Origin: a virus
Strand: one strand, 5' to 3'
IMG/VR virus record: IMGVR_UViG_3300033388_001888
Location: 1-36,609 of that record
Length of the DNA: 36,609 bases
The position numbers and the translations under genes are program-made. The first letter of the stretch is position 1. Each line of letters opens with the position of its first letter. Positions 1,560 through 34,596 of the stretch are shown here, piece after piece. Under the pieces are notes generated by a model. That model ran no database searches and was not told the origin of the DNA. It saw only the letters and a program-made list of their open reading frames with translations.

Positions 1560-2426
1560 ATGAAATATATAGTAACTTGCTCTGGCGGTAACGATTCAAT
1601 AGCGTTGTTGCAATTTATGACAGAGAATCACAAAGGTGAGTTTTCGGTTTTGTATAACGATACGGGTTGGGCAAGGTCTGACTGGCCAGCAAGAATTAAA
1701 AAGGTTGCTGATATCTGTTTTGGTTTGGGTGTTGCTTTTCACATCACTAAATCAATCGGATTAGAAGCGTTAGTTAGAAGTAAAAAGGGCTGGCCAATGC
1801 CAGCAAGCGCAATGCAATTTTGTACTAGTGAGCTAAAAGAAAAGCCAAGCAGTGAATTTTACGCCAAAACCGACCCTGACTGTGATGCGGTTATAGTTAC
1901 TGGTAGACGTAGAGCTGAAAGCCAAAACCGAGCTAACTTACCCAAGTGGCAATATGAAAGTAAAAAGCATGGTGGTCGTGATGTTTATAATCCGCTAGTT
2001 AACTTTGATGAGGATGAGCGAGATATTTATATTAGAAAGTTTGGCTTTGAGCCGCTACCTCATCAATCAATGGAGTGCTACCCTTGTGTTTGTGCTAATA
2101 AAACAGACTTGGCGCAAATGCCATTAGATGATGAGCGTATAAATTTGATTGAAAAAATTGAAATTGATATGGGATTCACTAGGAATAAAAAGCCTCGTGT
2201 AATGTTTCGGCCTTATCGCGTCGGTGGTGGTGTTGGTATACGTCAAGCGGTCGCTTGGGGTCGGGGTGAGAGAGGTTTTAAGAGTCATTACATACCTAAT
2301 CAATATAAGTTTAAGGGTGAGCAATGTGTAATGTTTGAAAGTGTTTCAGACGTTGCTTATGAGATAGAATCAAAGGCTGGCAAGGAATTTGCCAGACAGT
2401 GTGACGGTGGCTTTTGTGGTAACTAA
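1560..2426 (+). CDS. PP-loop ATPase, PAPS reductase-like family (288 aa)
   Basis: The N-terminus has the PP-loop SGGNDS (residues 8-13), the ATP-pyrophosphatase signature of PAPS reductases and related enzymes. Further family features are CTSELKEKP (88-96), TGRRRAESQNR (114-124) and a Cys cluster, ECYPCVCANK (172-181). A second Cys pair ends the protein (C281, C286). The sulfonucleotide-reductase ECGLH-type tail is absent, so simple PAPS reduction is doubtful. Phage members of this family are usually annotated 'phosphoadenosine phosphosulfate reductase' without proof. The Cys cluster could bind Fe-S or zinc, which would fit thiolation or adenylation of a base or nucleotide. It sits four bases after the HTH gene, with AAGGG as ribosome site. 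Confidence 0.85.
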   Translation: MKYIVTCSGGNDSIALLQFMTENHKGEFSVLYNDTGWARSDWPARIKKVADICFGLGVAFHITKSIGLEALVRSKKGWPMPASAMQFCTSELKEKPSSEFYAKTDPDCDAVIVTGRRRAESQNRANLPKWQYESKKHGGRDVYNPLVNFDEDERDIYIRKFGFEPLPHQSMECYPCVCANKTDLAQMPLDDERINLIEKIEIDMGFTRNKKPRVMFRPYRVGGGVGIRQAVAWGRGERGFKSHYIPNQYKFKGEQCVMFESVSDVAYEIESKAGKEFARQCDGGFCGN

Positions 2427-5447: not shown

Positions 5448-7832
5448 TTATGTCAGTATATTACCTCTTACATCACCAAAACTGTTACCTAATCCATCAG
5501 TTAAAGTGAGTCCGTTTTTATCTATAGCAGCACCAGCAACGCCGGGGTCTTTACCGCCACTACCTTCGGGCGCAAACTCTCCATCCTGCCCCAAGTCACC
5601 ACCATCACCGCCCTTGGTTCGTAGATTTTCCAATCCGACTTGTATTAACGCACTGCCACCAGTACCGCCATGCTCTAATGTTCCGTTGGTCGGGTTTGTT
5701 ACGGAGCCATTATCACCCCTGCTGTTAGTTGTATTGCCACCCCTAAAACCAGCACCACCACCAGCACCAGCAAAGGAAACGTCGGTACTTTCTGATGCTG
5801 ACTCGAACGAGTTACCACCAGCGCCACCACCACCACCGATTAAGCCATTATTAACTAATGTTACCGGGTGCCTCATAAAGATTGCCCCGCCACCATTGCC
5901 GGGTGTACTTAAAAATCCGCCACCGTCATCACTACCGCCATAACCAACAATTACACCACCATCATTGACCTGTATTGTCACTATTGCGCCAGCCGTCCAC
6001 AGCCCCGTATCTATGGTGTATGATGTCGCAACTTGCGAGCCAACTCTGACGCCATCTTCAATAATAAAAACAGCTTGCGTCAACGCTCCTTCTTGCTCTG
6101 GAAATTCTAACTCGTATATATCTCTTAGATTTATATTAAAGGACTCCGCTAGTTCGCTAGATGGCACAAATATAATATCGACTAAAGGGTCTCCCGCTCC
6201 TTGGTCTTGGTCTAACTCTTGGCCATAGGTAAACTCTAAAGCATTGTAAACGTAGTTTCTGCCCTCCTTAGAGCTTAATATCTGGTATACAGTATCAACG
6301 GGCAAGCCTGTAAAGTCCGTAATATCACGATGATTAACAACAGCCGTTTGACCGACCCAAAAATTAGAATCTTTAGCCTCTAATGAAAAGCTAATTTCTC
6401 TCGGAATGTCGGCAAACCGACGGCCAATTAAGGCTGCCAACTGTAAAGCTTGCGCCTTGCCATTGTTGGTTATCCATCGTGAATTAATTGTTTTGATTTC
6501 ACCAGCGCCATACTTAGCGATAGATTCTGTGTCGGTTCTTATTAGTGTTTGCTGATAATTACTAAAATCATCTAGGTTTTTTGTCGGGTCGAACTGTCCA
6601 AAATTCAAGAATATTGTTGAGCGTCTTAATTCTGGCTTGTCGGATGTTCTGAATGAATCGGCCACTATTCCGCTATCCATATTTATAGTGTTTCCGCTAG
6701 AATGTGGCGCCTTCAATGCGGTCATTTGTATTTTCTGTTTCTGCTCATCCCACCACAAATAATGTGGCATTGACTCGGCCAATTCCTTTAACAATTTGAA
6801 CACGTCAAAAGGCTTAACGATAATCCCGCTAAGGCCACCACTCAAGAAGTTATCAACCTCTACTTCCCATGAATCGAGCGGCATAAATGACGCGTCGACC
6901 GTGGTGTAGTTTGTTATTAAATCGTTAACGATAAAATCAACCTGTTTACCGATATATTCAAGGCATAACTGTACGGTGTCGTCCTCGTTATGTGCTGTGG
7001 CTGCGGTGTTGTTCTGCCCTCTACCACCCGTCAGCGTTAAGGTGTCGCCGCTCCTACTACTAAAAGCAATTACCTCTGAGTTAATCAAAACCTTTCCGCT
7101 TAGTGGGTATTCTGAACCAATCCCGGCAGGCTTTAATGTTAAAAATGCAGTTCCAGCACCCAGTCCGACGTCTAACTGACCGTTACTTGCTTTGGGTGCT
7201 TGTGCTTTTTTACTACTTACTAATTTAAGCGGGTCTTTAGCTGTGATTGAACATGTACCATTAGTCACGGTCATTTTATCAACGATATAATACCGGGTGG
7301 TAAAATTAGCCTCATCAAATACGCCATCAACTAAATAGCCAGATAAAACCCTTAGTTCTTTGTTTTGGTAATCAGGGTTCCTAGCTCTCAATTTAGTCCA
7401 AAAACTACCGCGTTCAGATGCTATATAGCTACGGCCGCTTAGGTATTTATCGACGCCTATATCGGAATGCGGGTGGTCGGTAAACGTACATGACACGCTA
7501 GCCCTAACACCTAATCCGCCAGCCAAATCTATTTTAGATGGTGATATGTTGACGGTTTTTAGGCTCGGGATTGGGTCAACAGTAGTCGAGCCAGCAAGGC
7601 CAATCGGCGCGGGTGAGCGTGACTGGTAAAATCTAAAGTGATTCAGTGAGCTGTCGACGGTATACGCTGATAAAAAGTTACATGTTTCTAGTGTGTTGAA
7701 GCATATATCGTCGCCCGTTTCGGTGGCGTTACATGGCGGTATACCTGAAAACTGAGTACAACCCGTTAAGAATAAATCAACTATATAAATATGTTCTTTG
7801 CCGAAAACTAGCTTTTCATTATTAAAACTCAT
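5448..7832 (-). CDS. Tail hub / receptor-binding tip protein (794 aa)
   Basis: Last late gene, starting inside the stop of the upstream tail gene (ATGA). The N-terminus has a conserved-looking Cys cluster: C25-x8-C34-x9-C44-x6-C51. The middle (about 130-560) looks like a baseplate hub, with a YLWWDEQKQKIQMTAL segment and a repeating strand pattern. From residue 627 on it is glycine-rich (runs such as GGGGGAGG, GAGGGAG, GGTGG, GGDGGD) and ends with LTDGLGNSFGDVRGNILT. Such polyglycine blocks form the host-binding tip in gp38-type adhesins. The role would be hub plus receptor recognition; the Cys cluster may bind an Fe-S centre, as in lambda L or GTA hub proteins, or form disulfides. Confidence 0.8.
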   Translation of the reverse strand: MSFNNEKLVFGKEHIYIVDLFLTGCTQFSGIPPCNATETGDDICFNTLETCNFLSAYTVDSSLNHFRFYQSRSPAPIGLAGSTTVDPIPSLKTVNISPSKIDLAGGLGVRASVSCTFTDHPHSDIGVDKYLSGRSYIASERGSFWTKLRARNPDYQNKELRVLSGYLVDGVFDEANFTTRYYIVDKMTVTNGTCSITAKDPLKLVSSKKAQAPKASNGQLDVGLGAGTAFLTLKPAGIGSEYPLSGKVLINSEVIAFSSRSGDTLTLTGGRGQNNTAATAHNEDDTVQLCLEYIGKQVDFIVNDLITNYTTVDASFMPLDSWEVEVDNFLSGGLSGIIVKPFDVFKLLKELAESMPHYLWWDEQKQKIQMTALKAPHSSGNTINMDSGIVADSFRTSDKPELRRSTIFLNFGQFDPTKNLDDFSNYQQTLIRTDTESIAKYGAGEIKTINSRWITNNGKAQALQLAALIGRRFADIPREISFSLEAKDSNFWVGQTAVVNHRDITDFTGLPVDTVYQILSSKEGRNYVYNALEFTYGQELDQDQGAGDPLVDIIFVPSSELAESFNINLRDIYELEFPEQEGALTQAVFIIEDGVRVGSQVATSYTIDTGLWTAGAIVTIQVNDGGVIVGYGGSDDGGGFLSTPGNGGGAIFMRHPVTLVNNGLIGGGGGAGGNSFESASESTDVSFAGAGGGAGFRGGNTTNSRGDNGSVTNPTNGTLEHGGTGGSALIQVGLENLRTKGGDGGDLGQDGEFAPEGSGGKDPGVAGAAIDKNGLTLTDGLGNSFGDVRGNILT

Positions 7833-8722
7833 GAGTCGGAATGCCCTTTAAAGTTAAATGATACTTCCATTAGGTCACTGCCGCCGCCCATATTGGTAGG
7901 TTTAATATCTCCCGTGGTATAGCCAAAGCTTGTATCTGATGGGTACTCGGCCGGATTCCACTTGATAAAAAATGGCGTGGTTACTGCCGAATCAACAAAC
8001 CTTTGAAAAACAGTGCGATACCAACCCGGCGTTAAGTGTCGCCAACTAAACTCTGTTGCTGTACCTCTACGGGTTACTGTGCGGCCTAAGAACTGGCCAC
8101 TATCAGACATTGTTGATTGATAGCTTGTTTTTTGTGATAGGCTGGCTGGACTATGGCCGCCATAAATTGAGCGTTCCATCTCCATAGCTTTTCCAGCATA
8201 CAGCACGCCCAATGTTGCACCAAAGTTGGGCGAATCAAAAGTAAATACTAGCTCGGCCACTACCACATCAAAACCAGAATAATCAAACATTATCGCGTTA
8301 TCAGTGTTAAAACTGAACGAATCAAAAAAGGTTAACGCCCCACCGACAGTGGTTGAGTATTCTATCGTTACAAATACCTGTCCGGCATCGTGCGACCCTA
8401 GTGTGTGAGCGCCGAATGCTATGAAATCAAATGTCGTTAGCGATTGAAATTGAAACCTAACAGGAGAACCAATGCCGCCCACCTCCCATCTTTCATAGGT
8501 GTTCGGGATTAAAGCTTTATCAGCAAAGATAAAATCAGATGAAACAAGTAAATTTTCATAGCCTATGCGGGCGTTGTTAGTGCTGCTTTCTGGCGGTGTA
8601 ATAGGTGTTAGCGTGTTTGGCACACCGATAACGCCGACCGTTTCAGGTGGTAGCGTGTTAGGTGTATCAATAGCGCCGACAGCCTCGGGCGCTAAAATAT
8701 TTGGTGGGTCTATCTTAGCCAT
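7829..8722 (-). CDS. Tail tip protein with N-terminal 14-residue repeats (297 aa)
   Basis: Residues 1-42 are three copies of the 14-residue PN-x-L repeat that fills the 283-aa protein encoded two genes upstream (10106-10957). The rest is one or two beta-rich domains. A conserved-looking C-terminal block runs from MERSIYGGHSPASL through GQFLGRTVTRRGTATEFSW, FFIKWNPAEYP and PTNMGGGSDLMEVSF. Its place between the fibre and hub genes and this composition suggest a distal-tail or tail-tip connector. The repeats may let it assemble with the repeat fibre. Confidence 0.75.
   Translation of the reverse strand: MAKIDPPNILAPEAVGAIDTPNTLPPETVGVIGVPNTLTPITPPESSTNNARIGYENLLVSSDFIFADKALIPNTYERWEVGGIGSPVRFQFQSLTTFDFIAFGAHTLGSHDAGQVFVTIEYSTTVGGALTFFDSFSFNTDNAIMFDYSGFDVVVAELVFTFDSPNFGATLGVLYAGKAMEMERSIYGGHSPASLSQKTSYQSTMSDSGQFLGRTVTRRGTATEFSWRHLTPGWYRTVFQRFVDSAVTTPFFIKWNPAEYPSDTSFGYTTGDIKPTNMGGGSDLMEVSFNFKGHSDS
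8597..8722 (-). repeat. Three copies of the 14-residue tail repeat
   Basis: Codons 1-42 of the 297-aa tail protein. Copies two and three read VGAIDTPNTLPPET and VGVIGVPNTLTPIT; the first (MAKIDPPNILAPEA) includes the start Met. All keep PN at positions 7-8 and L at 10, as in the 18-copy array at 10181-10936. Confidence 0.9.
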
Positions 8723-8760: not shown

Positions 8761-10101
8761 TTAAATATTAGCCGCATCTAATCTAGCTATTAACGCGTTG
8801 ATTTGTATTTGCTGGTCATAGCAAAGCTGAACCAAATGCGGGACGGCTTTTGATTGGTCAACACCGCAAGGAGTAACTACTTTTTCAGGTTCGATAATCT
8901 CGGTTTTGAATTCACCAGTGCCAACGGGGTTTACTTTGCCTGTGGGTACTGATTTAAACTCACCAGTACCGATAGTTAAAGCCTCCGGCTCTCCGTCAGC
9001 ATTTAAAACTGTAACTTGCTTGGTCATTTCAACATCAGCCATCACGGCGACGCCTCTCATAATTTCCACTTGTTCGGTAACGGCTGGCTCATATATCGAA
9101 CCTATCTCAACGTTTAAATCTGTTGAACCCTTACCCTCTGTAACCATCCCGCCAGCACCACAAGAGATTAACCGTTGAGCAACAAAGCCCGGTACTTTTA
9201 CTGATGGGTCACTTTTAAAGTTAAAGTACTGTACCGCGTCACTCTCAACAATAGCCTTGACTAACTCAAAAGCGTCAGATATTGGCGCGAAATTATCTTT
9301 TAATCTTTCGTCGGATGATACGTTATAGCTGGTCGCTGCTCCGCTTGTTGATATGGTGCCAACGGTGCCGTTGTCGTTTCTAAAATCCATAGCAACCTTA
9401 ACGTCATTAGCATTCTGGCCTATTACGATTGTCGAGTCTGCCGTGCCACTTCGACCGATGGTAATGGCCTTTACACCGTTAGCAGCTGGAAATCCAAGCA
9501 TATTAATAATATCAACTTCCATTTTCGTCACATCAAAGACAGCCGTGCCATCGAGTTCGAATTTTACGTTGCTGGACGTGTCAAAGCTCGCAACGTTACC
9601 GAAAAACGACCCGGTAGTGTCAAAGCCCATTTGGGCAAATGCGGACGAGCTACTAAAAAGGTCGCTTAGTGTGAGCTTACCTTCCGTGGTTGACGCGCTA
9701 ACTATAGATACACCTGTAGCGGCACCCGTCATGCGTTGACCACCTAAATCTAGTGCGTTAATCTCTATGGTGTTACCGTCTATTATGGTGTCATTGTCAT
9801 TTTTAAATGAGATACCGTTATTGTTGCTTGGGTTTTCAAACCTAGCCCCGGCACTATCCCACGACGTTACTGCCTTTTGTACTGCTCCATTGTTATCCGT
9901 CATTATAACGTAACCATCAACGGCACTAGCTGTAACGATATTAAGTATTGCGCCACCAGCGGCAGAGTTTAGCTCTACATCCTCTATCTCTAGGCTGCCA
10001 TTTGACTTTATGCCAGTGTTATCTGTGCCTATAGAGATGGCTGCCTTGTCTAATGCTGCGTCAATTTCTACGCCTGATTTATCGCTCAAGTAGTTTGCCA
10101 T
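8761..10101 (-). CDS. Tail fibre with C-terminal S74 self-cleaving chaperone (446 aa)
   Basis: The N-terminus MANYLSDKSGVEIDAALDKA is typical of side or tip fibre attachment domains. A beta-rich repetitive shaft covers about 30-255. The intramolecular chaperone (peptidase S74) begins near 260 with YNVSSDERLKDN, then QYFNF and VKVPGFVAQRL. The Ser263/Lys268 pair is the expected self-cleavage dyad; the chaperone helps the shaft trimerise and is then released. The C-terminal part (about 184 aa) is longer than usual and contains two similar GTGEFK segments. Good GGAG ribosome site. Probable receptor-binding fibre of the tail tip. Confidence 0.88.
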   Translation of the reverse strand: MANYLSDKSGVEIDAALDKAAISIGTDNTGIKSNGSLEIEDVELNSAAGGAILNIVTASAVDGYVIMTDNNGAVQKAVTSWDSAGARFENPSNNNGISFKNDNDTIIDGNTIEINALDLGGQRMTGAATGVSIVSASTTEGKLTLSDLFSSSSAFAQMGFDTTGSFFGNVASFDTSSNVKFELDGTAVFDVTKMEVDIINMLGFPAANGVKAITIGRSGTADSTIVIGQNANDVKVAMDFRNDNGTVGTISTSGAATSYNVSSDERLKDNFAPISDAFELVKAIVESDAVQYFNFKSDPSVKVPGFVAQRLISCGAGGMVTEGKGSTDLNVEIGSIYEPAVTEQVEIMRGVAVMADVEMTKQVTVLNADGEPEALTIGTGEFKSVPTGKVNPVGTGEFKTEIIEPEKVVTPCGVDQSKAVPHLVQLCYDQQIQINALIARLDAANI

Positions 10102-10105
10102 TTTT

Positions 10106-10957
10106 CTAAATCTCCACTAAAAAGAATTCGCCGTCAGAGGTTTGAAAAAACTCACTGCCAGAGGTTAAAAAGTATTGTTTGCCCGATGGTAAAATATTAT
10201 TTGGCGGCTGTACTTCGCCAACACTATCGGGCGTTAATGTATTTGGTACGTCGATATTACCAATATTATCAGGTGTTAAAGTATTTGGCGCATTAATACC
10301 ACCGACATTTTCAGCGGTTAAAGTATTTGGTGTATTAATATCGCCGACAGCCTGAGAGCTTAATGCGTTGGGTGTATCAATATTACCTGCCGATTCTGCG
10401 CTTAATGCGTTAGGTGTGCTTATTTCGCCCAATGCTGACGCTGGCAATGTGTTTGGTGTGTTGATAGCTCCGGGCAGTTCAGGTGGCAGGTCGTTAGGTG
10501 GTAAAATATCACCTACGTTTTCGGCTCCTAATGAATTTGGTAAGCCTATTGCCCCGACACTTTGGGCGCCCAGTGAATTTGGCAAGCCAATGGCGCCCAC
10601 TGACTCAGGGTTTAGGTTGTTTGGTAGTTCAATATTGCCGACACTTTCGGCGCCAAGTGAATTCGGCGCATTAATCTCCCCGACACTTTGGGCTGGTAAC
10701 GCGTTGGGTAATCCTATGGCGCCAACCACCTCCGCTCCTAGCGTGTTTGGTGCCGTGATAATTCCGACACTTTCGGCGCCCAGTGCGTTAGGCGTTGCTA
10801 TTGCTCCGACGGTTTCGGCGCCTAAATTATTGGGCGCCACAACACTACCAACAGCCTTTGCTGGTAGGTTGTTTGGTGTTGATATATTACCCTCAGCGCT
10901 ACTGTTTAGCGTGTTGGGCGGGTCTATTGTTCCGGGGTCTTGCGGTGTAATTGACAT
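10106..10957 (-). CDS. Tail protein made of eighteen 14-residue repeats (283 aa)
   Basis: After seven residues (MSITPQD) the protein is 18 gapless copies of a 14-residue unit, for example VGAIGLPNSLGAQS. Position 2 is Gly, 7-8 are Pro-Asn and 10 is Leu (Ile once). It ends with a 24-residue tail containing a second short repeat (FLTSGS, FFQTSD, FFLVEI). The gene lies between tape measure and S74 fibre, with GGAG upstream, so it is a tail component. Gly/Pro-Asn turns at fixed spacing suggest an elongated beta-solenoid or similar rod. I do not recognise a named family. Confidence 0.85.
   Translation of the reverse strand: MSITPQDPGTIDPPNTLNSSAEGNISTPNNLPAKAVGSVVAPNNLGAETVGAIATPNALGAESVGIITAPNTLGAEVVGAIGLPNALPAQSVGEINAPNSLGAESVGNIELPNNLNPESVGAIGLPNSLGAQSVGAIGLPNSLGAENVGDILPPNDLPPELPGAINTPNTLPASALGEISTPNALSAESAGNIDTPNALSSQAVGDINTPNTLTAENVGGINAPNTLTPDNIGNIDVPNTLTPDSVGEVQPPNNILPSGKQYFLTSGSEFFQTSDGEFFLVEI
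10181..10936 (-). repeat. 42-bp coding repeat array (18 units)
   Basis: Eighteen tandem 42-base units, one per 14-residue repeat (residues 8-259), with no gaps. Units have diverged at third positions, though neighbours such as units 9 and 10 (VGAIGLPNSLGAQS and VGAIGLPNSLGAEN) are nearly identical. That points to past unit duplication. The regular composition also creates a long spurious antisense frame. Confidence 0.95.
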
Positions 10958-10958
10958 T

Positions 10959-12914
10959 TTAAGTTGCTCCGCCTACGTTTAATTCCATACCATCGCCCAA
11001 TGCGTCATTTATCTGACTGAATAAGCCACGCACTTGGTCGGTGGACATTAGGCCGTCGCCAGCTATATTTACATCGATAGTTCTATTTGGTGTTGCTGCG
11101 GGTGCTGAGCCTCCGCCACCAGCAGAGCGACCAGCGCCAGCGCCAGCACTTCCGCCACTACCGCCACTTGTTCCGCCCATGCTTTTTCCGCCTGATTTTA
11201 TGCTATTAATCATCCCGGCTGTTTGAGCTATAGACGCCGCCGCGTATGACGCCGCCGCAACAGGTGCCCAAGGTCCGCCAATTGACATACCAGCAGAGAA
11301 AGCAGCTACAGCAGCCTCTTTACCTTTGATTACAGCACTAACAATAGCTAAGCCTTGTTGGATTTTTTGAGCCTTTTTACCACCCAAAGATAAGGCTTTT
11401 GCCGTGGCATCTAGTATTGAAGTGGTTACGTTTAATTTTGCTTTTTCTGTTTTCTGAGAAAGGGCGACACTAGCGGAGGCGAATTGCTCTTCGGTGATTT
11501 GCTTCGTTTTTAGTGCGTTATCAAGTATTTGCTGCTCCCTCTCAAAGCGCCCCATCATGGTTTCCTCTTTGAGTACGCCTTGCTCTAGTAGTGCCGCTAA
11601 AATTTGTTCATTTTCGTCACGTATTCTTTTCGCTTCTGAACTTTCTGCGGGTGATTCTGCGCCATCGGCACTATCTGCCTTATCTGTTTCAGCTTTGGTG
11701 ACCGTTGCTGTTGCTATTCTATCAGCCTCAGCAATGGCAGCATCGGCAAAGTTTCTTATCTGGTCACTAGGCAATTCCTGCATTGCCAGCTCATGTAATT
11801 CGGCGTTAGTTTCTTTGACCAAGCCAATCATGTTATCAGCGACAGCGTTTACACCCGTGACAAATTTTGAGCTATTAACCTCTGGTAGCTCTTTTATGCC
11901 AGTGCCGAATACGCTATTAATAACCTTTACCGCGTCATTTATATCTTTTATTAAAAAATCAACAGAGCTAGATATTATTTTGGTGATACCTTGAAACACC
12001 TTGACGATTAATGCGGCAAACCCAATCGCCCCAACCTCTAAGGTTTTAAATACTAGCTGTATGCCATGTAATCCATCAGCAAAAGTACCAATGACAGCTA
12101 AAACACCATCGAATACCTTATCGATAGTGCCGCCAAATCCTTGAGTCTCGATAGCGGCATCAATAAATTGACTCGCTATGGCCTCAATAATTGGTGATAG
12201 TTTGACAGTTAGTTTATTGGCTAACCCGGTGACAACCTCTGACGCCTTAAACAGTGCGTCATTGGCGTTTTCAACTTTGGTGGTCTCAATCCTTGATAGT
12301 GAGATTCCCATTTCGTCAATTGACTTGACAGTGGGCGCTAACCCCTCATCCTTTAATTGGTCAAGCATCTTGAGCATACGAACACCAGAGCGGCCAAATA
12401 GGTCGTTAGATATTGAAGCTTTTGTTGCTTGGTTGTTTACGCCAGATAAGGCTATCGCTAGTTGTTCGATTTGCTTATCGGGTGCTAGGTTTACAATTTC
12501 ATTAACGTTCACGCCTAAATCAGCGAGAGCGTCAGCACTTGCGCCGCCATTCCTAGCCGCATTACCTAGATTTTTTTGCATCCTCTCAAGCGATTTGTTT
12601 ACCATTTCGTTAGAGGTACCTGTTAATTCACCTATGTGCTGTAACGCTTGTAATTTTTCTTGCTGAATACCTAAAGCGTCGGATGTTTTAGCTAATGAAT
12701 CGAGTGATTTTAGCTGGTTTTTAACTACGGCAGTGGTAACAGCAGTTACGGCGGTGACGGCAGCAGCGGCCCATTTACCCCACTGATTTGTGCTTGCTCT
12801 TAGTTGCTTGCCGCCCTCAGTTAGAGCCTTGCCAGATGCCGCAATTCCTTTTTTAACGCCTTTAGCGTCAACCGTTATTTCTACGCTTAACGCGCCAATT
12901 ACAGAACTAGCCAT
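10959..12914 (-). CDS. Tape measure protein (651 aa)
   Basis: A long helical protein directly downstream of the tail chaperone frames. It starts MASSVIGALSVEITVDAKGVKKG and has the A/T-rich hydrophobic segment KWAAAAVTAVTAVTTAVV, typical of tape measures, plus central hydrophobic stretches and long coiled coils. The C-terminus is Gly/Ser rich (GGTSGGSGGSAGAGAG) before a short folded end. Tape measures set tail length at roughly 1.5 angstrom per residue, so about 100 nm here, and can form a membrane conduit. ATG follows the frameshift ORF stop by one base. Confidence 0.92.
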   Translation of the reverse strand: MASSVIGALSVEITVDAKGVKKGIAASGKALTEGGKQLRASTNQWGKWAAAAVTAVTAVTTAVVKNQLKSLDSLAKTSDALGIQQEKLQALQHIGELTGTSNEMVNKSLERMQKNLGNAARNGGASADALADLGVNVNEIVNLAPDKQIEQLAIALSGVNNQATKASISNDLFGRSGVRMLKMLDQLKDEGLAPTVKSIDEMGISLSRIETTKVENANDALFKASEVVTGLANKLTVKLSPIIEAIASQFIDAAIETQGFGGTIDKVFDGVLAVIGTFADGLHGIQLVFKTLEVGAIGFAALIVKVFQGITKIISSSVDFLIKDINDAVKVINSVFGTGIKELPEVNSSKFVTGVNAVADNMIGLVKETNAELHELAMQELPSDQIRNFADAAIAEADRIATATVTKAETDKADSADGAESPAESSEAKRIRDENEQILAALLEQGVLKEETMMGRFEREQQILDNALKTKQITEEQFASASVALSQKTEKAKLNVTTSILDATAKALSLGGKKAQKIQQGLAIVSAVIKGKEAAVAAFSAGMSIGGPWAPVAAASYAAASIAQTAGMINSIKSGGKSMGGTSGGSGGSAGAGAGRSAGGGGSAPAATPNRTIDVNIAGDGLMSTDQVRGLFSQINDALGDGMELNVGGAT

Positions 12915-13487: not shown

Positions 13488-13883
13488 TTAAACTCCCGCC
13501 GTAAATACAACAACACCTGACGAGCTAAAGCTGGCATCGAATGTAGTTAAGCCAGCGGTTTCACCAGTGTTCGATATGTTATCCATGAAGGCGTCAAAAG
13601 CTAGTGTTGAGCCATCAGGATAAGCGACGGTAATCGGGAATATTTGACTTGTTCCGCTATATGCCGCAACTAATTCAAGGTTTTTAACTATGCCGCTAAA
13701 TGTAAATTCAACCGATTTTAAACCCGGTACGGCCAAGCGCTCTTGCCAGCCAGACGAATTATCGTCGGTGGTGTCAAGTGCTTCATTGTTAAAAGTAAAT
13801 CCTTTAGAGTTAACGCCAGTAATAGCCGCTCCGCCTAAAGTAAAAGTTATTTCTCTGCCGATTATGCCGATACCTACGCTCAT
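13488..13883 (-). CDS. Major tail tube protein (131 aa)
   Basis: Beta-rich 131-aa protein with an AGGTAGG ribosome site. It begins MSVGIGIIGREITFTLGGAAI and contains a loop with TTDDNSSGWQERLAVPGLKSVEFTFSG, the pattern of TP901-1/GTA-type major tail proteins. It then has PITVAYPDGS and ends FDASFSSSGVVVF. It should stack as hexameric rings around the tape measure. Neighbours (tail terminator before, chaperone after) agree. Confidence 0.88.
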   Translation of the reverse strand: MSVGIGIIGREITFTLGGAAITGVNSKGFTFNNEALDTTDDNSSGWQERLAVPGLKSVEFTFSGIVKNLELVAAYSGTSQIFPITVAYPDGSTLAFDAFMDNISNTGETAGLTTFDASFSSSGVVVFTAGV

Positions 13884-28663: not shown

Positions 28664-28801
28664 CTATAAATCATCAACCTGTTTCGCTATAAATTCTTTC
28701 ACTTTGATTTCATCATCTAGCTGCCTTTTAACATCTAAAAACATAGCGGTCATTTCAGCGAGTGCCTTTTCTAACTCGCTATATTTTGGTTTTTTCTTCA
28801 T
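28664..28801 (-). CDS. Small coiled-coil protein (45 aa)
   Basis: Starts inside the methyltransferase gene (23-base overlap) after a GAGGCG site. MKKKPKYSELEKALAEMTAMFLDVKRQLDDEIKVKEF and so on forms a single heptad-like helix. It ends ten bases before the next ATG. No family; probably a real small gene given start signal and packing. Confidence 0.55.
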   Translation of the reverse strand: MKKKPKYSELEKALAEMTAMFLDVKRQLDDEIKVKEFIAKQVDDL

Positions 28802-29567
28802 TGGTCGCCTCAATTCTATCCTTGGCTATTTGAAAATAATCCGCATCAAGTTCAATACCGATAAATTTACGGTTTAGGTTTTTTGCTGCTACTCCCGTCG
28901 TTCCGCTGCCCATTGTAAAATCTAAAACCGTTTCGCTTTCGTTGGTGTATGTTTTTATTAGGTACTCCATTAGTGCTACTGGTTTTTGTGTTGGGTGCAA
29001 TCCTCGCTCACGGTTAAATCTCTGTATGCTTCTGGGGCATCTTAATTTATCAACACTTAGTTTTTTACCCCCTTCCTGTGTGCCGTAAACAGAGTCTTTT
29101 CTTCCACTATCAATAGTAGTTGTAACTTTACCTTTCCGGCTGCCAATTCTTTCCTGTTTAATTTGGTTGTATGTTGTTTTGCCTTTACCAAATATTAAAA
29201 CGCTTTCGTGCTCCTTCATTGGCTGATACTTTACCGTTGCAAAATTACTACCGCTATCTTTTTCCCATATCCACTCATACTTGAACATTTTTAAATTACT
29301 CGTTACAAGCACACTGGTAAACGGCTGGCTTGCTGTCATTACAATTGCCCCATTGGGCTTAATAATGCGCTTTAACTGCTCCCACATTGGCTCTAACGGT
29401 ATAATTGAATCCCATTTGCACGCCGTAGTTCCATAAGGGGGGTCAGCTAATATCATATCGACTGAGCCATCGGGAATTTCTTTCATTCGTTCCAGGCAAT
29501 CACCTAACATTAAATTGATATCGCTCTTTACTTGCTCCGCTTCTCGCTGTTCTGAATAATGACCCAT
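28779..29567 (-). CDS. DNA methyltransferase, N6-adenine/N4-cytosine type (262 aa)
   Basis: DPPY at 42-45 (ILADPPYGTTACKWD) is the catalytic motif IV; the AdoMet motif DFTMGSGTTGVAA (216-228) comes after it, giving beta-class order. HPTQKPVALMEYLIKTYTNE is the usual motif before it. Target recognition would be in about 105-185. No cognate endonuclease is nearby, so it is a solo enzyme, likely protecting phage DNA from host restriction or marking it. AGGG site upstream. Confidence 0.92.
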   Translation of the reverse strand: MGHYSEQREAEQVKSDINLMLGDCLERMKEIPDGSVDMILADPPYGTTACKWDSIIPLEPMWEQLKRIIKPNGAIVMTASQPFTSVLVTSNLKMFKYEWIWEKDSGSNFATVKYQPMKEHESVLIFGKGKTTYNQIKQERIGSRKGKVTTTIDSGRKDSVYGTQEGGKKLSVDKLRCPRSIQRFNRERGLHPTQKPVALMEYLIKTYTNESETVLDFTMGSGTTGVAAKNLNRKFIGIELDADYFQIAKDRIEATNEEKTKI

Positions 29568-33822: not shown

Positions 33823-34596
33823 TTAGTTATTAAACATTTCTTGTTGAGCTTCTGTGCCCTTTACTTTCTCAACTTCTTTGTTTTCATCAATCCAAATCGG
33901 CGCACAATTGTGCTGCTCAATGCGAGCTGCGATTATTTCAGCTCGCTGCGACCTTGTTGGCGGTTTATATATTCCATACCTGTCAATACTGCCACTATTT
34001 ACCGCTGCGTTCGTACTGTCGGCACTTGATAGCGGTAGCCTTGTAAATACTTTCGGGTTAAGCATACGTAGGCCGTGGAATTTGCAGCGCGGTCTACCAT
34101 TACTATCACAAGCAACACTCATTGCCTCAGTCATACGAACCCACCATGATTTTGTATTTGGTGTACCCCATTCGCCAGAGCTGCCAAACGCCACCCATTC
34201 AAAATTACTCACTAGGTAATCAAGATACTCAAGCGATTCGTGTAGATGCCAAACTGGAACGCCCTTTGCTCTATAGCCTCGTTTTACCCACTTGTGAACT
34301 AAGTCCAAATTATCCTGCTCGTTACCGTCGATTTTATCGGGTATCAAGCACCACTCAAAATTTGGGTGAGCTGCGTACTCGTTTACCCAATTCGCATAGT
34401 CCTCGAAATTAATCTCACCCTTTCCGGCTTTCCAGTGACTAAAAGCACCGTTATCTAAAACAAAGCTTTGGCAGTATTCAGCAACAATAGCTATATCGTC
34501 CTGGCGGTAAAAACTCACTAGGGCATGGCGACCAAGTAAAAATCTCGGTCTATCTGCTGCGGTTCCGCCCAATGGTGTGCCGTGATAGTGAATCAT
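33823..34596 (-). CDS. TGT/DpdA-like enzyme, putative 7-deazaguanine transferase (257 aa)
   Basis: TIM-barrel-like protein resembling tRNA-guanine transglycosylases and phage DpdA. Key blocks: FVLDNGAFSHWK (Asp48; compare DSGGFQ of TGT), CLIPDKIDGNE, VPVWHLHESLE, VAFGSSGEWGTP (138-141; compare the TGT GGLAVGE loop), GRPRCKFHGLRML (168-179) and PLSSADSTNAA with Asp193 as candidate nucleophile. DpdA enzymes swap guanine in DNA for preQ0-type bases, protecting phage DNA from restriction. No preQ0 synthesis genes are visible, so the host would have to supply the base. tRNA or another substrate remains possible. The C-terminal zinc site of TGT is absent. Confidence 0.75.
   Translation of the reverse strand: MIHYHGTPLGGTAADRPRFLLGRHALVSFYRQDDIAIVAEYCQSFVLDNGAFSHWKAGKGEINFEDYANWVNEYAAHPNFEWCLIPDKIDGNEQDNLDLVHKWVKRGYRAKGVPVWHLHESLEYLDYLVSNFEWVAFGSSGEWGTPNTKSWWVRMTEAMSVACDSNGRPRCKFHGLRMLNPKVFTRLPLSSADSTNAAVNSGSIDRYGIYKPPTRSQRAEIIAARIEQHNCAPIWIDENKEVEKVKGTEAQQEMFNN

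What the first reader, a model, noticed from the sequence alone, without database searches (positions are those of the whole stretch)
10106..10957. A tail protein made of eighteen perfect-phase 14-residue repeats
The protein is 7 + 18x14 + 24 residues, with no gap in the repeat phase. Gly at position 2, Pro-Asn at 7-8 and Leu at 10 are nearly invariant, while other positions vary. I do not know a described fold with this unit. It lies between tape measure and S74 fibre, so it is likely a rod or ruler at the tail tip, perhaps a new type of beta-solenoid. A second, 8-residue repeat (FLTSGS, FFQTSD, FFLVEI) closes the chain and may be the cap or attachment end.
Basis: partly seen in the sequence, partly recalled or inferred. 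Interest (0 to 1): 0.85.

Follow-up and report, generated by a model that had tools for sequence, protein, structure and literature searches.

The report
14-residue repeat arms on phage tails
A marine phage carries a protein built from 18 copies of a 14-residue unit; related units form arms of very variable length on the tail-tip and sugar-binding proteins of many marine phages, and their sequence changes in step with the tail-tube protein, which suggests that they bind along the outside of the tail.

Summary
The repeat matches nothing in Pfam or PHROGs; PDB sequence hits are spurious. It is not a one-off. The window's distal tail protein (7829-8722) starts with three more copies, and in about 40 marine-phage loci the same array sits at the N-terminus of that protein, at the N-terminus of lectin-domain proteins encoded just after the tape measure, or alone. 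Sequence drifts almost completely but the 14-residue phase is kept. It is not a length ruler: unit number is unrelated to tape-measure length (rho 0.08), and two genomes with identical tube and tape-measure proteins differ by exactly two units. The most telling result is statistical: array sequence tracks the major tail (tube) protein, also after controlling for Dit, tape measure, hub, chaperone and terminator (partial r about 0.45), and this repeats in a second sample. My best model is a chain cladding the outside of the tail tube, about one unit per ring, carrying adhesion domains. That contact is inferred, not shown. AlphaFold2 gives only a low-confidence solenoid (pLDDT 52), so the fold stays open.

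The parts
10106..10957 (-). array protein gene, 283 aa
   Evidence: ORF list and translation; dN/dS 0.22 against L006
10181..10936 (-). 18 in-phase 14-residue units (residues 8-259)
   Evidence: cyclic-profile decode with 0 phase breaks
10109..10180 (-). C-terminal 24 residues, aromatic 8-residue periodicity; possible docking end
   Evidence: translation; similar aromatic segments in L006, L032, L172, L174 array proteins; function inferred
7829..8722 (-). distal tail protein (Dit), phrog_11633: 3 array units + CBM32-like domain + tail-tube fold
   Evidence: AlphaFold2 pLDDT 84.9; Foldseek to CBM32 structures and to T1 and FCWL1 tail structures
8594..8713 (-). three further copies of the same unit at the Dit N-terminus (residues 4-43)
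   Evidence: 52% identical to the array; decode; pLDDT mostly < 50
8761..10101 (-). S74-type tail fibre protein
   Evidence: Pfam PF13884 E 0.002, below the curated cut-off; PHROG tail/virion structural families
5448..7832 (-). hub/adhesin with GP38-like C-terminus
   Evidence: phrog_11439 E 2.7e-205 and Pfam GP38 3e-7
10959..12914 (-). tape measure protein, 651 aa
   Evidence: phrog_9483 E 5.7e-119
13488..13883 (-). major tail (tube) protein, 131 aa; inferred partner of the array
   Evidence: phrog_1407 E 5.4e-22; array distance tracks it

Best explanation
The gene encodes a free-standing form of a repeat arm that these marine siphophages otherwise attach to the N-terminus of their distal tail protein or of lectin-domain adhesins. 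The arm lies, largely extended, along the outside of the tail tube, each 14-residue unit contacting one tube ring (14 x about 2.9-3.3 A = 40-46 A; ring rise about 40 A). It clads the tube and fixes adhesion domains to it: the CBM32-bearing Dit, lectin domains, or here probably the neighbouring S74 fibre through the aromatic C-terminal segment. Shown: the array, its carriers, constant phase, whole-unit length changes, purifying selection, covariation with the tube protein. Inferred: physical contact with the tube, one unit per ring, extended conformation, fibre docking.
For: (1) The array travels between carriers at one locus, between tape measure and hub: alone (window, L006, L026 85 aa, phages PHS3/AL/SL25/PS_L5 61-63 aa), before Laminin_G_3/phrog_5939 lectin domains (L020-L029, L034, L036, L041), or fused to the Dit (XX1924, PB15, L054, L090, L129). 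(2) The phase is kept at 14 although sequence drifts to VAVPVTVTPETLGE, PAIPTSKTVVAEAS, IDSGSEISPASSAG. (3) Array profile distance follows tube-protein distance: Mantel r 0.60; partial 0.46 given Dit and tape measure; 0.44-0.46 with terminator, chaperone, hub, GC and fusion state added; 0.50 among Dit-fused and 0.60 among separate arrays; other genes about 0 or negative. (4) The same partial-correlation table also picks out Dit-hub (0.47) and tape measure-chaperone (0.40), pairs expected to touch. (5) Loci fetched through the tube protein repeat it (n=10, partial 0.49, p 0.001). (6) The array gene is not next to the tube gene (chaperone and tape measure lie between), so linkage is a poor explanation. 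(7) Units never exceed the estimated number of rings by more than 1% in 35 loci. (8) The tube proteins here are about 131-140 aa, which leaves little room for an added decoration domain; glycan-binding decoration of the tube is known in phage Douge (PMC13033339); ring rise is about 40 A in R4C (PMC10276861).
Against: No structure, complex model or virion proteomics for any array protein. Partial Mantel tests can overstate significance when sequences share ancestry, and the tube protein may simply be the least saturated proxy of shared ancestry; simple correlations with the other genes are also 0.33-0.45, and some pairs with near-identical tube proteins have different arrays (L073/L127, L077/L127). 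The fit of 14 residues to one ring is arithmetic only. AlphaFold2 prefers a compact coil, weakly. Arrays are dispensable at the family level: H105/1, P12026, Pan4 and the freshwater branch lack them.
Confidence: 0.4

Rival explanations
1. The units stack as a compact beta-solenoid rod, one 14-residue coil per unit (18 coils would be about 86 A), that holds adhesion domains away from the tail tip.
For: AlphaFold2 draws strands at unit positions 1, 4-5 and 9-10 in almost every unit, with V1, I4 and L10 as a plausible core; constant unit length with no indels.
Against: pLDDT 51.7, pTM 0.45, no PDB fold match; the three units on the Dit have pLDDT mostly below 50; some arrays have Lys at position 10 or Pro at position 4 in all units (L029, L026), which does not suit a buried core; does not predict covariation with the tube protein.
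Confidence: 0.22
2. The array is a flexible Pro/Ala/Thr/Ser-rich linker that lets adhesion domains reach the cell surface, with the 14-residue period a by-product of 42-bp duplications.
For: Low-complexity composition, low AlphaFold2 confidence, unit-wise length variation between near-identical genomes.
Against: Units are ancient (mean DNA identity 0.53) yet in phase with invariant G, P, N and no indels, and are under purifying selection; stand-alone arrays link nothing; tube covariation unexplained.
Confidence: 0.18
3. The array trimerises into a fibre shaft (triple beta-spiral or similar in principle), the window protein forming a fibre together with the S74 protein.
For: Neighbouring S74 gene; lectin domains at the C-terminus in relatives; fibre shafts often use short repeats (general knowledge).
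Against: It also sits on the Dit, whose relatives form hexameric rings (PMC13243795, PMC10276861); only two or three hydrophobic positions per 14; no multimer prediction could be run.
Confidence: 0.12

Closest known systems
Distal tail protein with N-terminal galactose-binding decoration, as LSH1 gp24 (PMC13243795)
   Same: Position after the tape measure, CBM32/galactose-binding domain plus tail-tube fold, followed by a hub with a GP38-like antireceptor
   Different: LSH1 is described without any 14-residue array; here arrays precede the CBM32 domain or stand as separate genes
Tail-tube decoration domains (Ig-like in lambda, T5; glycan-binding in Douge, PMC13033339)
   Same: Would place carbohydrate-binding domains on the tail tube
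   Different: Those are domains of the tube protein itself; here a separate repeat chain would do it in trans
Lectin-domain tail proteins of phrog_5939 (Laminin_G_3)
   Same: C-terminal parts of many array-bearing relatives match at E 1e-33 to 1e-93
   Different: The window protein has no such domain, and the array itself is not covered by the match
Tape measure proteins with 11-residue units (Belcaid 2011, PMC3271669)
   Same: Periodic tail protein whose unit may relate to the tube lattice
   Different: Inside the tube, length sets the tail; the array is Pro-rich and its length is unrelated to the tape measure

Membership tests
Tail-length ruler | Length scales with tail (tape-measure) length | tested here: not met
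   Spearman 0.08, p 0.65, n 35; L032 and L174 share identical MTP and TMP but differ by 2 units; L020/L147 differ by 1
Described repeat or beta-solenoid family (Pfam, PHROGs, PDB) | Profile or sequence match to a known family | tested here: not met
   Pfam 0, PHROGs 0; PDB hits only to the designed Pizza propeller at E 3e-4, with bias as large as the score
Beta-solenoid fold (any) | Confident coil model or fold match | tested here: inconclusive
   Regular strands but pLDDT 51.7, pTM 0.45; Foldseek PDB no match below E 3.6
Triple beta-spiral fibre shaft | Trimer with 15-residue repeats and several alternating hydrophobics | not testable with these tools
   No multimer prediction; 14 residues and two or three hydrophobic positions per unit
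Distal tail (Dit) family, for P0001 | Tail-tube fold after the tape measure gene, before the hub | tested here: met
   pLDDT 84.9; matches to T1 (9l0f) and FCWL1 (9jlf) tail proteins and to CBM32 structures; gene order
Virion component | Detected in purified virions | not testable with these tools
   No proteomics of an array-bearing phage was found in the papers searched
Tail-tube-bound chain (proposed) | Covariation with the tube protein beyond shared ancestry | tested here: met
   Partial Mantel 0.36-0.60 across subsets, repeated in a second sample; ancestry is only partly controlled

The most novel reading that the evidence does not exclude
A previously undescribed class of phage protein: an extended chain of 14-residue units that runs along the outside of a non-contractile tail, one unit per tube ring, and carries adhesion domains or fibres as exchangeable cargo, so that the tail is decorated in trans rather than by domains of the tube protein.
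Probability: 0.33. Interest if true: 0.85.

Novelty: new variant of a known kind. Interest (0 to 1): 0.6.

Why it matters
The array marks a widespread but unannotated module in marine siphophages (in PB15 the antisense frame was annotated instead). If it binds the tube, it explains how phages with small, undecorated tube proteins mount sugar-binding domains on the tail, and it gives a modular anchor whose length can change by whole units. The constant 14-residue spacing under near-total sequence turnover makes the question 'solenoid, linker or lattice-matched chain' directly testable.

Tried and rejected
Tape-measure-like ruler: rejected. Beta-propeller (Pizza/NHL) hit at E 3e-4: rejected, compositional, bias equals or exceeds score, 42-residue unit with no shared core pattern. 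Antisense ORF 10368-10982 (+): a by-product of the codon pattern of the array; similar antisense frames appear opposite other arrays. Array pattern in 84,980 bacterial and archaeal species genomes: 9 pattern hits, none an array by profile score, so the strict GxIxxPNxL form was found only in viral contigs. Flagellar FliK and DUF6324 weak Pfam hits of L032: below cut-off, composition. L099, L151 and L152 pattern hits are unrelated repeats. Array-only searches of the phage collection with other arrays found only XX1924 and PB15 or nothing; distant arrays were found through the Dit instead.

Full report
Observation. The ORF is on the minus strand, 10957 down to 10106, 283 aa. It is exactly 7 + 18x14 + 24 residues. 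G2, P7 and N8 are invariant in 18 units, L10 is L in 17, I4 is I/V in all. Self-identity at lag 14 is 0.48 against at most 0.17 in 2000 shuffles. Units share only 53% DNA identity on average and use mixed synonymous codons at the invariant residues, so this is not a recent DNA duplication. The nearest relative (L006, 74% identical) keeps 18 units without an indel, with dN/dS 0.22; the distal tail and major tail proteins of the same pair are 97% identical, whereas the tape measure has been replaced (24% identity, 651 and 653 aa).

Surroundings. Gene order on the minus strand is major tail protein, chaperone-like protein, tape measure, array protein, S74-type protein, P0001, hub/adhesin. P0001 (297 aa, phrog_11633) begins with three more copies of the unit. 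AlphaFold2 models the rest of P0001 with confidence (mean pLDDT 84.9) as a CBM32-like galactose-binding domain followed by a tail-tube fold, with Foldseek matches to CBM32 structures and to T1 and FCWL1 tail proteins. This is the arrangement described for the distal tail protein gp24 of Alishewanella phage LSH1, followed there too by a hub with a GP38-like antireceptor (PMC13243795). The array units on P0001 have pLDDT mostly below 50.

Family. No Pfam or PHROG model matches the array protein. Searching IMG/VR with the P0001 domain gave 80 loci, later extended with other queries. Arrays of period 14 occur (a) fused to the N-terminus of the distal tail protein, e.g. XX1924 about 16 units, L129 about 19, L054 and L090 about 10; (b) at the N-terminus of proteins encoded right after the tape measure that continue into Laminin_G_3/phrog_5939 lectin domains, e.g. 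L020-L029, L034, L036, L041; (c) alone, as in the window, L006, L026, and 61-63 aa genes of PHS3, AL, SL25 and PS_L5. A freshwater/cyanophage branch, Marinomonas P12026 and H105/1 have none. Across about 250 units the pattern reduces to I/V/P at 4, P at 7 (90%), L/I/V/K at 10, T/S at 11, small residues elsewhere; phase breaks are rare and lie mostly at array ends or at inserted segments.

Length. Unit number (about 3 to 24) is unrelated to tape-measure length (rho 0.08, p 0.65, n 35). L032 and L174 have identical tube and tape-measure proteins and differ by exactly two units; L020 and L147 differ by one with 98.5% identical tape measures. The ruler idea is therefore rejected, while change by whole units is confirmed.

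Partner. Before testing I noted that a chain lying along the tube should covary with the tube protein. In 26 loci the distance between array profiles correlates with major-tail-protein distance (Mantel 0.60), and still at 0.46 after controlling for distal tail protein and tape measure; those two drop to about 0. Adding chaperone, terminator, hub, GC and fusion state leaves 0.44-0.46. The signal holds within Dit-fused arrays (0.50), where the array and the Dit are one polypeptide, and within separate arrays (0.60). In the table of all partial correlations the other strong pairs are Dit-hub 0.47 and tape measure-chaperone 0.40, pairs that are expected to touch, though they are also near neighbours on the genome; the array gene is not a neighbour of the tube gene. 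Leave-one-out values stay between 0.36 and 0.50. A second set of 10 loci, fetched through the tube protein, gives 0.49 (p 0.001), the tape measure 0.04; the combined 38 loci give 0.36. Limits: Mantel tests do not fully remove shared ancestry, the rank-based value is lower (0.34), and some pairs with similar tube proteins have dissimilar arrays.

Geometry. The tail tube of the marine phage R4C has a rise of about 40 A per hexamer ring (PMC10276861). Fourteen residues in an extended chain span about 40-46 A (textbook backbone geometry). No array exceeds the estimated number of rings (tape-measure residues x 1.5 A / 40 A, my estimate) by more than 1%. This is arithmetic, not evidence of contact.

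Fold. AlphaFold2 with 21 array sequences gives a regular coil with strands at unit positions 1, 4-5 and 9-10, but at pLDDT 51.7 and pTM 0.45, and nothing in the PDB resembles it. Arrays with Lys at 10 or Pro at 4 in every unit do not fit one buried core. I leave the fold open.

Cargo. Array-only proteins of the window, L006, L032, L172 and L174 carry an aromatic segment of 8-12-residue periodicity after (or near) the end of the array and are followed by a fibre-like gene. I infer, without test, that this segment docks the fibre.

Conclusion. The finding is a real, ancient and widespread repeat module. That it is attached to, or is part of, tail-tip and adhesion proteins is shown by fusion; that it lies on the tail tube is a statistical inference at about 0.4 confidence.

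Noticed in passing
L004:5914-7035 and KX982260 record 754-1284: In Alteromonas phage PB15 the array gene is not annotated; an antisense ORF across it was called instead, and the gene runs over the record's arbitrary start.
   Followed up: partly
window 10959-12914 and L006:1840-3801: The tape measure protein has been exchanged between two otherwise very similar genomes (24% identity, 651 versus 653 aa) while neighbouring tail proteins are 97% identical.
   Followed up: partly
L012:5711-5896, L013 and L015 same position, L008:5687-5878: Stand-alone 61-63 aa arrays of about 3.5 units in Pseudoalteromonas phages; those of AL, SL25 and PHS3 carry a cysteine near each end, and these small genes are mostly unannotated.
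   Followed up: no
L101:336-1310: A 23-unit array with a higher-order repeat of about five units (70 residues).
   Followed up: no
window 33823-34596 (-), 1560-2426 (+), 28779-29567 (-): Queuine tRNA-ribosyltransferase-like, PAPS-reductase-like and DNA methyltransferase genes on the same phage.
   Followed up: no
L041:1642-5997 (same contig as L149): A 1451-aa protein in which arrays alternate with several lectin-like domains.
   Followed up: partly
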